In this document: positions 60,320-64,000 of the stretch, piece after piece | How positions within the stretch are numbered: position 1 is the first letter of the stretch | How the letters are laid out: each line of letters opens with the position of its first letter | The notes under the pieces: generated by a model | Seen by the model: the letters and a program-made list of their open reading frames with translations, nothing else | The model's database searches: none | Told to the model about the DNA's origin: nothing | NCBI GenBank assembly: GCA_004332195.1 | Contig: SJBG01000001.1 | Location: 1-64,000, forward strand | Length of the DNA: 64,000 bases | Direction: 5' to 3' | From: Desulfobulbaceae bacterium | GTDB lineage: Bacteria > Desulfobacterota > Desulfobulbia > Desulfobulbales > Desulfurivibrionaceae | Position numbers and translations under genes: made by a program

Positions 60320-62101
60320 TTATGCCAATATTGCCAATTGCTCCCTGATGACTTCCTGTCGGTCGTCAAAAAAACTGCTGACCCCACCCACTGTCTGGGT
60401 GTTTTCATGGCCTTTACCGCAAATCAGCACGACATCGCCGGGGCGGGTCCGCAACAAGGTGTCCCTGATTGCCTGGCGACGAGATACTACCAAATCATAA
60501 CCCTTGAACATGTTTGCCGCCCCCAACAAACACTCCAAACGGCAACGTTGCGACCCGACGCTCAATAGACCACGCTCAATTGCGGCGATGATTGCGGAAC
60601 TCTGCTCACTTCGGGGATTATCCGAAGTCAGAATCACGATATCGGCTAAACTGGCGGCAATTTTCCCCATTAAAGGCCGTTTGCCCCGATCCCGATCGCC
60701 ACCACAGCCAAAAATCGTAATCAAACGTCTCGGGGCAAGGCGACGAAGGGTCCGCAGGACTTGGGCCAGGGCATCGGGGGTATGGGCGTAGTCGACAAAA
60801 ACCTCTACCCCGTGATGAGAGGTGAAACGCTCTAGGCGCCCCGGCACCGCTCCGGCGTTGGCCAGGCCGGCGCTTATCTGCTCAACATTCAGTCCCAGTG
60901 CCAAGCCAACACCTGCCACGCCAAGGAGGTTATCAAGGTTGAAGTTTCCCACCATGGTGGAGCGCAAAGTCCACTGACCAGCCACTCCCGTCAAATGCGC
61001 TTCGATTCCGGCCAGACTGCTACGACTGGTCAGCACCTGCAATTCCCCACGATCACCGCCACAACGAAAAAGCCGAAGAGCAGCCTTGCCCCGACCCGAC
61101 TCGTCAGCGGGGGTGGCCAAAGGTTGCAACACTGCGATTAAACGTTGGCTCCAGTTCTCGTTTCCATTTCGGCGCTCGCCTTCATTTCCATTCCCGTTTC
61201 CACTCTCATACCCATGCCCATGCCCATTCCCAGTCCTGTTCCCGTTATCAATGTCCTCTTGTTTCCGGCCAACAACCACCACCGCCGCCCCCTGAGGTTT
61301 GAGGTGATGGGAAAAAAGGCGCTGTTTACAGGTGAAATAACTTTGCATGTTACCGTGGTAATCCAAATGTTCACGGCTGAGATTGGTAAACAGGGCCACA
61401 TCAAAAAGAATCCCCGCCACCCGACCTTGGTCAAGGGCGTGGGAGGAGACCTCCATGATCACATGAGTGACTCCGGCATTAGCCATTTCCCGCAGCAATT
61501 GTTGTAGGCTCTCCGGTTCGGGGGTGGTGTGGGGAGCCGGCACAACCTGGTCCCGATAACGATAGTTGATTGTGCCGATCACCCCTGGTTCCCCGCCGTT
61601 AAAACGAATCAACTCCTCCAGCAAATAGGCGGAGGTGGTTTTGCCGTTGGTCCCGGTGATGCCGATCATAATCATTTCACGGGCGGGGAATCCTCGCAGG
61701 GCGGCACAAAGCCGACCAAAGGCGGCCCGGGGGTTGTCGGTCGTCAAATACAGGATTTCATGGCCGTCGGGGGTGATCGCCGGTCTTTTTTGATCAACAG
61801 CGGCAGCGGTATCAACCGCGGCGGTGGTGGTGATCGTTGTGCCGGGAGCTGTTGTGCCGCCTGCCCTGAGCGGCAGGTTGTTGCGTCGGCCAGTAAGCAC
61901 CACCCGACAGCCGCGGGTTCTGGCATCAGCAATATATTCCCGTCCATCAACTTTGGTCCCCATCAAGGCAACAAACAGTGAATCCTCCCCAGCTCGGCGC
62001 GAATCGGCGGTGACCGCGGTCACCGTCAAATCGTCGAGGTTTCTCCCGGAATCAACCGAGTAGTCCACCTTGGCCGCTTTAAATAGCGCGGTCACATTCA
62101 T
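60320..62101 (-). CDS. murE: UDP-N-acetylmuramoyl-tripeptide synthetase (meso-DAP type motif DNPR)
   Basis: GITGTNGKTTSAYLLEELI; VDYAHTPDALAQVLRTL; LTSDNPRSEQ. Confidence 0.96.
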   Translation of the reverse strand: MNVTALFKAAKVDYSVDSGRNLDDLTVTAVTADSRRAGEDSLFVALMGTKVDGREYIADARTRGCRVVLTGRRNNLPLRAGGTTAPGTTITTTAAVDTAAAVDQKRPAITPDGHEILYLTTDNPRAAFGRLCAALRGFPAREMIMIGITGTNGKTTSAYLLEELIRFNGGEPGVIGTINYRYRDQVVPAPHTTPEPESLQQLLREMANAGVTHVIMEVSSHALDQGRVAGILFDVALFTNLSREHLDYHGNMQSYFTCKQRLFSHHLKPQGAAVVVVGRKQEDIDNGNRTGNGHGHGYESGNGNGNEGERRNGNENWSQRLIAVLQPLATPADESGRGKAALRLFRCGGDRGELQVLTSRSSLAGIEAHLTGVAGQWTLRSTMVGNFNLDNLLGVAGVGLALGLNVEQISAGLANAGAVPGRLERFTSHHGVEVFVDYAHTPDALAQVLRTLRRLAPRRLITIFGCGGDRDRGKRPLMGKIAASLADIVILTSDNPRSEQSSAIIAAIERGLLSVGSQRCRLECLLGAANMFKGYDLVVSRRQAIRDTLLRTRPGDVVLICGKGHENTQTVGGVSSFFDDRQEVIREQLAILA

Positions 62102-64000
62102 GGTTGCCGACCTCGACTGCTGTTACCAACCACCGTCAAATTGTCGCTATCCCTCCGCAGTTCAATGATCCCCTCGCTGATCCCCTCCAGGGCCACGCCG
62201 GGAGCGGGATGTTGGGCAACAACCCGGCCGCTGCCCTGCACCTGAATTCGTAAACCGGATGTCTGTAAACCCTGCAGGGCCTTGCGCAGGCTCAGGCCCA
62301 AAACATCAGGCATGTAATCGGGAGAACGATTGCCCACCACCTGAGTTTGTAGCCCCTCTTTTTCCCGCGTGCTTAACCACTGCCGATACAAGGTGTCTTC
62401 ACGGACCGTGATGATTCCCGGCAGCGGTGGAATAATCGGGTGACGCAAGGTCGCGCTCCAGCGGTCAAGATCCCTGACGATCCCGGGCAACGGCGAGGGC
62501 AAAGTCAGATCAATTCGAGCCCGGTCGATAAAGACCAGGGCCACCAGGGTCGGATGCCTGGCTGGAGCCATCCCCAGCATAACTGCTTGATAACGACGCG
62601 GCTCCTCTATCTCCAGATTGGCGTCTTGTCTGTTTTCCGTTCCGCCCGGCAGAGCCAAGCTTGCTAGCTCAGCAGACTCCTGCCGGGTTTGCGTGATCAA
62701 ACCTGGTTCCGACTCTTCGTTGACCAAAGGACCAGCCACGACAGCTAAATCGCCAAGATCAGCGGTCTTCGTCTGTTCGTCAAAGAACAAATGGCCTGGC
62801 CCCGCCCCCCAAGTCACCAGACTCTCAAAAGTGACGACTGTTTTTGAATCGCCAGCCATGGCGATCAATTCCTGCCGCAAAGCCTGGCCGGCAGCATCCG
62901 GAAAAATCCCCTCGGTTGCTCTCGGTTTATGCCGCCAAAACTGCTCTCCATCCCAGAATCCCTTGATCAGATGGGGCTCCACCACCTCACCACCGTTAAA
63001 CAAGCGACTAAAGGCAGTCAACAAGGAGATCCCGCTAACCGTGCGCAAGGCCGCAGCTCGCTGCGTAGCGCCTTCATCCTTATAGCCACCGGTGGCGGTC
63101 AGCGCCCGGTTTAAACTCCGGATTTCCAGCAAATCCAGAGCGCCGGCTGCGCAAAGCTCAATCTGCCGCAAAAAAGTTTCCGCCGACTTAGTCTTTGTCC
63201 GGGGAATGCCAGCCAGGTTGGCAGAGGCATAGATCCCCGGCTCCCATTCATACCAATCTCTCTTTGAGTCCACGGCCCCCGCAAGCGGAATTATGGCCGC
63301 AGTACCTTGTTTATGGGCCACCGCTCGGCTGAACAATGCTCGCAACGCCCCCAGATGGACCTGAGTCACTACGGCGCGATTAAGCCGTTCATCGGTGCCG
63401 ACCATCCAAAAACGATTGGGATCGTAGGTGGGGAGACTGGCCATGGCTACCACCTCTCCACGGCTAATATCCATTATCACTGCTGCCGCCGAGTCACCGT
63501 CAACCGCCCTCATCGCCCGAGCCAACCTTTGCTCCAGCTCTTGCTGCAACGTCAAATCCAAGGTGCTAACCACATGAACACCAGAGGCGGCCACCACCCT
63601 TTCGGGCACCCCGGCAGCCGCCAAACGAATGTCTGAAATTCCGCCGCGCAGGATATCGTCGTACGCCAACTCGATGCCGGCCAAGCCCTGCTCATCCCGG
63701 ACAAAACCCACAACATGAGCAGCTCCCGTCTGCTGCGGATAATAACGGTGGAATCGGGGCATAACGTGGATTCCCGGCAGATTACCCGCCAGTACCATAT
63801 CCACCACTTCCTTGCCCGCCTGACGGGTTAACCAAACAACACCGCGTTCACGGCGGAAAGATTCCAGTAGTTGTTCCCGATCCAGGTTCAAAAGTCGAGC
63901 CAACTCGACGGCAGTCCCCTCGGGATCGACAATTTCAAGGGGGCGGGCGTAGAGCGAGTTGAGCTGCAAGCTTAGGGCCAGGATATCAAAATTACGATCA
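62098..64000 (-). CDS. ftsI: FtsI/PBP-like protein with C-terminal PASTA domain; transpeptidase motifs degenerate; N-terminus beyond the window
   Basis: Reads open to the window end (DRNFDILALSLQLNSLYARPLEI); GVHVVSTLDLTLQQELEQRLARAM, ASLPTYDPNRFW, MLGMAPARHPTLVALVFIDRARI; PASTA-like YMPDVLGLSLRKALQGLQTSGLRIQVQG. Confidence 0.85.
   Translation of the reverse strand, partial: DRNFDILALSLQLNSLYARPLEIVDPEGTAVELARLLNLDREQLLESFRRERGVVWLTRQAGKEVVDMVLAGNLPGIHVMPRFHRYYPQQTGAAHVVGFVRDEQGLAGIELAYDDILRGGISDIRLAAAGVPERVVAASGVHVVSTLDLTLQQELEQRLARAMRAVDGDSAAAVIMDISRGEVVAMASLPTYDPNRFWMVGTDERLNRAVVTQVHLGALRALFSRAVAHKQGTAAIIPLAGAVDSKRDWYEWEPGIYASANLAGIPRTKTKSAETFLRQIELCAAGALDLLEIRSLNRALTATGGYKDEGATQRAAALRTVSGISLLTAFSRLFNGGEVVEPHLIKGFWDGEQFWRHKPRATEGIFPDAAGQALRQELIAMAGDSKTVVTFESLVTWGAGPGHLFFDEQTKTADLGDLAVVAGPLVNEESEPGLITQTRQESAELASLALPGGTENRQDANLEIEEPRRYQAVMLGMAPARHPTLVALVFIDRARIDLTLPSPLPGIVRDLDRWSATLRHPIIPPLPGIITVREDTLYRQWLSTREKEGLQTQVVGNRSPDYMPDVLGLSLRKALQGLQTSGLRIQVQGSGRVVAQHPAPGVALEGISEGIIELRRDSDNLTVVGNSSRGRQP

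What the first reader, a model, noticed from the sequence alone, without database searches (positions are those of the whole stretch)
62098..64000. FtsI homologue has lost all three transpeptidase active-site motifs
The dimerisation region, the lead-in PTYDPNRFW...NRAV, the stretch MLGMAPARHPTLVALVFID and a PASTA domain are clear. But where EPGSxxK should follow NRAV the protein reads VVTQVHLGALRALFSR; the SxN region reads ELCAAGALDLL; the KTG region reads ESLVTWGAGPGHLFF. The ORF is intact over 620+ aa, so this looks like a maintained pseudoenzyme, not a decaying gene. Together with the missing ftsW, the standard FtsW-FtsI septal synthase may be replaced by other enzymes, with this protein kept as a scaffold or regulator.
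Basis: partly seen in the sequence, partly recalled or inferred. Interest (0 to 1): 0.82.

Follow-up and report, generated by a model that had tools for sequence, protein, structure and literature searches.

The report
Dead FtsI kept, FtsW lost
A whole order of sulfur bacteria keeps the gene for the main cell-division wall enzyme FtsI at its usual place, but the enzyme's active site and its contact to the missing partner FtsW are gone, so these bacteria must build the wall between dividing cells with other enzymes.

Summary
Confirmed, and wider than claimed. The window's minus-strand gene 62098-64000 (it runs on to contig base 64209; about 700 aa) sits in the ftsI slot of the dcw cluster. The catalytic Ser and Lys are Ala288 and Ala291, and KTG is gone; an S-A-N remains at the SxN position. 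The genome is a Desulfurivibrio relative (Desulfobulbales). It has one SEDS protein, RodA, in an mreBCD-PBP2-RodA operon; ftsW is missing between murD and murG. Across the order and seven further families of the phylum, 0 of 46 homologues keep the nucleophile, against 22 of 22 FtsI from the rest of the phylum. The pseudo-FtsI is under purifying selection (pedestal dN/dS about 0.05). It has also lost most of the anchor that activates FtsW (E. coli R210/K211 deleted in 29 of 31), but keeps the head residues that bind FtsL. FtsZ, FtsA, FtsQ and FtsB remain; FtsL is a weak match. Best reading: a maintained FtsQLB-docking scaffold, with septal wall made by a class A PBP (as in C. difficile) or, less likely, RodA-PBP2; which one is not shown. 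FtsW loss in four Desulfobulbaceae genomes was published in 2021, with FtsI assumed active; its inactivation appears unreported.

The parts
62098..64000 (-). pseudo-FtsI gene (window part); 5' end lies outside the window, at contig base 64209
   Evidence: open frame of 703 codons; profile and fold match FtsI/PBP3/SpoVD
63640..64000 (-). pedestal (PBP_dimer) domain, head subdomain kept, anchor parts degenerate
   Evidence: Pfam PF03717; anchor comparison
63370..63486 (-). only clearly recognisable N-terminal part of the transpeptidase domain (MASLPTYDPNRFW...NRAV)
   Evidence: PF00905 positions 2-36
63346..63348 (-). codon for Ala288 where the catalytic Ser of SxxK should be
   Evidence: alignment with 22 catalytic FtsI and with P. 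aeruginosa FtsI
63337..63339 (-). codon for Ala291 where the SxxK Lys should be
63217..63225 (-). S329-A-N331 at the SxN position (non-conserved relic)
   Evidence: counts
62197..62313 (-). PASTA domain
   Evidence: PF03793, 30.5 bits, cut-off 23.2
55953..55995 (.). murG-murD junction where ftsW lies in relatives; no gene here
   Evidence: ORF ends 55953 and 55995; control locus L199 has a SEDS gene between murD and murG
60320..62101 (-). murE, directly downstream of pseudo-ftsI (conserved synteny)
51104..51952 (-). ftsQ
   Evidence: POTRA_1 FtsQ-type PF08478
49857..51086 (-). ftsA
   Evidence: PF14450, PF02491
48563..49945 (-). ftsZ (start probably further in)
   Evidence: PF00091, PF12327

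Best explanation
The gene is the orthologue of ftsI by position and descent, turned into a pseudoenzyme. SHOWN BY SEQUENCE: the Ser and Lys of SxxK and the KTG motif are gone, FtsW is absent, the anchor subdomain that contacts and activates a SEDS partner has degenerated, while the TM helix, the pedestal head with its FtsL-binding residues, part of the transpeptidase fold and PASTA are kept under purifying selection. INFERRED: the protein still joins the FtsQLB complex at midcell as a scaffold or signal relay, but no longer drives a SEDS polymerase. Septal peptidoglycan is then polymerised and cross-linked by a bifunctional class A PBP (C16 or C15 in this genome), as shown for C. difficile PBP1; RodA-PBP2 keeps to elongation. 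That the pseudo-FtsI itself recruits or activates the class A PBP is the least certain step.
For: One SEDS protein (RodA: TIGR02210 418 bits, over cut-off; TIGR02614 ftsW 302, under cut-off) in mreB-mreC-mreD-PBP2-RodA. No convincing second SEDS in 58 genomes of the family and order or in 25 Desulfobulbus genomes, including single-contig genomes. Catalytic Ser: 0 of 46 pseudo versus 22 of 22 control FtsI. Synteny mraZ-rsmH-ftsL-psFtsI-murE-murF-mraY-murD-murG in the loci long enough to show it, with a SEDS gene between murD and murG in the control. Purifying selection. Anchor lost (match to catalytic consensus: ratio 0.21 and 0.30; E. coli R210/K211 deleted in 29 of 31) versus FtsL-contact head kept (ratio 0.87) (contact residues from PMC7614612, activation residues from PMC8078798). 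FtsB, FtsQ, FtsA and FtsZ kept, FtsL weakly matched. Glycosyltransferase (class A type) domains in all 24 genomes tested. In G009 and G031 a class A PBP gene lies a few kb from pseudo-ftsI on the same contig. Precedents: C. difficile PBP1 (PMC10693644, PMC12539705); B. subtilis PBP2B, where a catalytically dead FtsI still supports division (PMC8078798).
Against: No experiment and no interaction data. The RodA-PBP2 pair is kept in nearly all these genomes and could serve the septum. In C. [quoted passage not shown] Anchor-region alignment is uncertain because the segment is so divergent. The one genome without SEDS, PBP2 and MreB (G141) is a draft in which hemH, the rod-operon neighbour elsewhere, is also undetected, so it may only be an assembly gap. 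The class A PBP linkage to dcw was seen in only two genera.
Confidence: 0.5

Rival explanations
1. RodA-PBP2, the only SEDS-bPBP pair left, makes both lateral and septal wall; pseudo-FtsI marks the division site or is a passive structural part of FtsQLB.
For: RodA and PBP2 are intact (PBP2 keeps YAPGSTFK and AGKTGTA) and kept across nearly the whole order. Active class B PBP and SEDS are mostly lost or kept in matched pairs, so the remaining pair could be general purpose.
Against: The operon is the standard mre Rod operon with no link to dcw. In C. difficile, with a similar inventory, the class A PBP and not RodA-PBP2 made the vegetative septum (PMC10693644). G141 may lack the whole Rod system but keeps pseudo-FtsI (not conclusive).
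Confidence: 0.3
2. Pseudo-FtsI binds and activates RodA at the septum in place of FtsW, so RodA has two partners: PBP2 for elongation and pseudo-FtsI for division, with cross-linking by another PBP (like B. subtilis PBP2B with its catalysis dead).
For: TM helix and pedestal are kept; the pedestal is known to activate SEDS proteins (PMC8078798); a catalytically dead FtsI can work in this way in B. subtilis and S. aureus (same paper).
Against: The anchor parts that touch SEDS extracellular loop 4 are the ones degraded or deleted: R210/K211 region gone in 29 of 31, TM-pedestal segment unconserved and of low model confidence.
Confidence: 0.1
3. The protein has left the divisome and is now a PASTA-based cell-wall sensor or regulator that merely stays in the operon.
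For: PASTA under strong constraint; transpeptidase remnant evolves faster; NCBI names it only 'PASTA domain-containing protein'.
Against: FtsL-contact head residues are the best-kept part; some families' short forms lack PASTA yet keep the pedestal; strict dcw synteny.
Confidence: 0.08
4. Sequencing error or ordinary pseudogene.
For: None found.
Against: Same state in many independently sequenced genomes, including single-contig ones; intact ORFs; purifying selection.
Confidence: 0.01

Closest known systems
FtsI / PBP3 (class B PBP), e.g. P. aeruginosa FtsI and C. difficile SpoVD
   Same: TM helix, pedestal head, transpeptidase-fold remnant, dcw position between ftsL and murE; best profile and fold matches
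   Different: No SxxK, no KTG, anchor for SEDS activation lost, no FtsW partner
Clostridioides difficile non-canonical divisome (PBP1-driven; PMC10693644, PMC12539705)
   Same: No functional FtsW or FtsI; one RodA-PBP2 pair plus class A PBP
   Different: C. difficile keeps catalytic sporulation enzymes SpoVD/SpoVE in the dcw cluster and lacks FtsA; here a catalytically dead FtsI is retained together with FtsA, FtsQ and FtsB, in Gram-negative lineages
Bacillus subtilis PBP2B and Staphylococcus aureus PBP1 (scaffold role; PMC8078798)
   Same: FtsI needed although its catalysis is not
   Different: There the wild type is catalytic and FtsW present; here the loss is natural and fixed across an order, with FtsW gone
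Cable bacteria and Desulfobulbus divisome inventory (Geerlings 2021, PMC7873302)
   Same: ftsW reported absent in four Desulfobulbaceae genomes
   Different: That paper lists FtsI as present and assumes septal wall is made by FtsI activity; the loss of its active site was not noted in the passages read

Membership tests
FtsI (divisome class B PBP, catalytic) | position in dcw cluster between ftsL and murE | tested here: met
FtsI (divisome class B PBP, catalytic) | TM helix and PBP_dimer pedestal | tested here: met
   PF03717 39.9 bits over cut-off 24.4; helix 2-38 in the model
FtsI (divisome class B PBP, catalytic) | SxxK catalytic motif | tested here: not met
   A288, A291; 0 of 46 homologues keep the Ser
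FtsI (divisome class B PBP, catalytic) | SxN motif | tested here: inconclusive
   S-A-N aligned here but S-P-E in most homologues
FtsI (divisome class B PBP, catalytic) | KTG motif | tested here: not met
   deleted or unalignable in the pseudo set, present in 22 of 22 controls
FtsI (divisome class B PBP, catalytic) | cognate FtsW in the genome | tested here: not met
   one SEDS, RodA
FtsI (divisome class B PBP, catalytic) | SEDS-activating anchor subdomain (E. coli R210/K211 region) | tested here: not met
FtsI (divisome class B PBP, catalytic) | beta-lactam binding | not testable with these tools
   needs a Bocillin assay
C. difficile-type class A PBP divisome | no functional FtsW/FtsI pair | tested here: met
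C. difficile-type class A PBP divisome | class A PBP present | tested here: met
   two in this genome; the glycosyltransferase domain in all 24 genomes searched
C. difficile-type class A PBP divisome | class A PBP drives septation | not testable with these tools
   needs depletion, moenomycin and localisation
PBP2B-type scaffold | retained binding surface for FtsL/FtsQLB | tested here: inconclusive
   head FtsL-contact residues kept (ratio 0.87); binding itself not tested

The most novel reading that the evidence does not exclude
Desulfobulbales and several further families of the phylum divide with a new divisome core: FtsQLB bound to a catalytically dead, SEDS-uncoupled FtsI that recruits or switches on a class A PBP, so the septal synthase has been swapped while the regulatory chain FtsQLB to FtsI was kept.
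Probability: 0.4. Interest if true: 0.85.

Novelty: new variant of a known kind. Interest (0 to 1): 0.74.

Why it matters
FtsW-FtsI is described as considered universally conserved (PMC10693644); C. difficile was a clear exception. Here an entire Gram-negative order (Desulfurivibrio, Desulfobulbus and their kin; the published cable-bacteria inventory also lacks ftsW) and several further families have lost it, while keeping FtsI as a protein under strong selection with its catalytic site and SEDS-activating site both gone. That separates the structural role of FtsI from its enzymatic and activating roles in a natural experiment, predicts insensitivity to FtsI-directed beta-lactams, and corrects a published division model for cable bacteria and Desulfobulbus.

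Tried and rejected
Sequencing error or decay: rejected by comparative data and dN/dS. A hidden catalytic FtsI or FtsW elsewhere: none found. G141 as proof that division works without RodA: the genome lacks SEDS, PBP2 and MreB, but hemH, a rod-operon neighbour in the window's genome and in G280, is undetected too, so left as inconclusive. Single origin of the pseudo state: one tree gave one clade with support 92/92, but it contained a wrong-strand ORF for G036; the corrected tree needs two changes, so a single origin is neither shown nor excluded. Early regex and ORF picks included a few wrong ORFs (L034, L155, L162, L181, L188 antisense; L171, L187 neighbouring gene), corrected before the counts. 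Papers: no report of FtsI inactivation in this group found in the held library, which is not the whole literature.

Full report
OBSERVATION. The ORF at 62098-64000 on the minus strand is open and is cut by the window edge. With more contig it is 703 codons from a TTG (L065:2099-4210, contig bases 62098-64209), with a predicted N-terminal TM helix. Upstream are ftsL, rsmH and mraZ; downstream murE, murF, mraY, murD, murG, murC, murB, ftsQ, ftsA and ftsZ (mur names from the sequences themselves). There is no ftsW between murD and murG. Pfam finds PBP_dimer (39.9 bits), a transpeptidase match whose best stretch covers only profile positions 2-36 of 299, and PASTA.

MOTIFS. A profile of 25 homologues aligns along most of its length with P. 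aeruginosa FtsI: NRAMIDVFEPGSTVKPF is matched by N-R-A-V-V-T-Q-V-H-L-G-A-L-R-A-L-F, so Ser becomes Ala288 and Lys Ala291. No KTG exists; the region holds a linker of low model confidence (465-528). The true SxN position reads S329-A-N331, an S-x-N by letter, but homologues mostly read S-P-E. The AlphaFold model (mean pLDDT 75) matches SpoVD and P. aeruginosa PBP3/FtsI best in the PDB.

GENOME. The 1.66-Mb genome (100% complete) holds four proteins matching the transpeptidase family: PBP2 (C4), two class A PBPs (C16, C15, which also carry the glycosyltransferase domain) and this remnant. It holds one SEDS protein, in mreB-mreC-mreD-PBP2-RodA. This one passes the RodA model cut-off (418 vs 336.7) and fails the FtsW one (302 vs 337.5). 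PBP2 keeps PGSTFK and KTGTA. FtsB (C19), FtsQ, FtsA and FtsZ are present; the FtsL match is weak.

TAXONOMY AND BREADTH. Named relatives are Desulfurivibrio (D. dismutans, D. alkaliphilus) and other Desulfobulbales. Of 58 genomes, the window's own plus its genus, family and order, 56 match the protein, and none has a convincing second SEDS gene; the same holds in 25 Desulfobulbus-group genomes, with a few fragmentary extra hits in draft assemblies. In a 299-genome survey of the phylum most genomes have two SEDS genes; single-SEDS genomes form clusters of families. In seven families outside the order (f27, f59, f65, f71, f86, f94, f101) an FtsI in the pseudo state is present; in the two of these whose neighbourhood was read (f94, f59) it is in the same dcw slot without ftsW. 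In others (f33, f36, f37, f53, f58, f70, f82) only a PBP2-like class B PBP was detected; in f17, f28, f32 and f89 the remaining SEDS goes with a catalytic FtsI and no PBP2. So SEDS and catalytic class B PBP mostly come and go as pairs (exceptions such as G109 and G071 are draft genomes with truncated genes). Across 68 FtsI-slot proteins the catalytic Ser is present in 22 of 22 catalytic rows and 0 of 46 pseudo rows. These catalytic rows are from the phylum only, and the rows were sorted by their motifs, so the count describes the split; it is not an independent test.

SYNTENY. In the 39 Desulfobulbales loci and in G280 and G002 the protein lies at the same place; those long enough run mraZ-rsmH-(ftsL)-psFtsI-murE-murF-mraY-murD-murG with no SEDS hit. 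The control locus L199 has a SEDS gene between murD and murG.

SELECTION. In close pairs (synonymous divergence about 0.2-1.2) dN/dS is about 0.02-0.11 in the pedestal, 0.1-0.4 in the transpeptidase remnant, mostly 0.04-0.15 in PASTA, and 0.06-0.23 overall (Nei-Gojobori, pairs not independent). The protein is maintained, the remnant less strictly.

WHAT WAS LOST BESIDES CATALYSIS. In E. coli the signal runs FtsN to FtsQLB to FtsI to FtsW through the FtsI pedestal and FtsW extracellular loop 4; G57, S61, L62, R210 and K211 affect it (PMC8078798). In P. aeruginosa FtsL touches FtsI at L64, P72-P78 and F151-P156 in the head and at I58, R193 and 208-215 in the anchor (PMC7614612). Mapped on the alignment (E. 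coli FtsI sequence from memory, checked by the positions of S307, G57, S61, L62, R210 and K211), the TM-pedestal segment keeps 0.21 and the anchor hairpin 0.30 of the agreement seen in catalytic FtsI; R210/K211 are deleted in 29 of 31. The FtsL-contact head residues keep 0.87, the rest of the head 0.74. So the SEDS-facing part is gone and the FtsL-facing head is kept.

MECHANISM. Shown: loss of FtsW, loss of catalytic residues, loss of the anchor, retention under selection, retention of most of FtsQLB/FtsA/FtsZ. Inferred: the protein is a scaffold on FtsQLB, and septal wall comes from a class A PBP. C. difficile, with RodA-PBP2 and a class A PBP, uses the class A PBP. A class A PBP gene lies a few kb from pseudo-ftsI in G009 and G031, a weak hint. 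The main rival is RodA-PBP2 doing both jobs; RodA activation by pseudo-FtsI is disfavoured by the anchor loss.

PRIOR ART. Geerlings 2021 (PMC7873302) reported ftsW, ftsN and zipA absent in two Ca. Electrothrix and two Desulfobulbus genomes, listed FtsI as present and described septal synthesis as FtsI activity. I found no report that this FtsI lacks its active site; NCBI names the D. alkaliphilus protein only as PASTA domain-containing.

LIMITS.

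Noticed in passing
G141 (Desulfobulbus-group draft genome; L161, L193): No SEDS, no PBP2 and no MreB detected although pseudo-FtsI and class A PBPs are present; hemH, the rod-operon neighbour elsewhere, is also undetected, so it may be a gap in the assembly.
   Followed up: partly
L194 (G036:C1:132500-139500), near G036 base 138110: rodA is split into two frames next to a run of six C in a single-contig genome of the same group; a sequencing error or a real frameshift.
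   Followed up: partly
L073, L092, L094 upstream of mraZ: A penicillin-binding protein gene lies on the opposite strand just upstream of the dcw cluster; in G009 and G031 the contig there carries a class A glycosyltransferase domain.
   Followed up: partly
families f33, f36, f37, f53, f58, f70, f82 of the phylum survey: One SEDS and one PBP2-like class B PBP, no FtsI detected at all: possible complete loss of FtsW and FtsI.
   Followed up: no
families f17, f28, f32, f89 of the phylum survey: The opposite state: one SEDS with a catalytic FtsI and no PBP2 detected, as if the Rod pair was lost.
   Followed up: no
window genome G000: At 1.66 Mb it is smaller than the congeners in the sample (1.8-3.1 Mb) although rated 100% complete.
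   Followed up: no
window 42716-43183 (-): Short ORF that reads like a piece of an integrase-core transposase.
   Followed up: no
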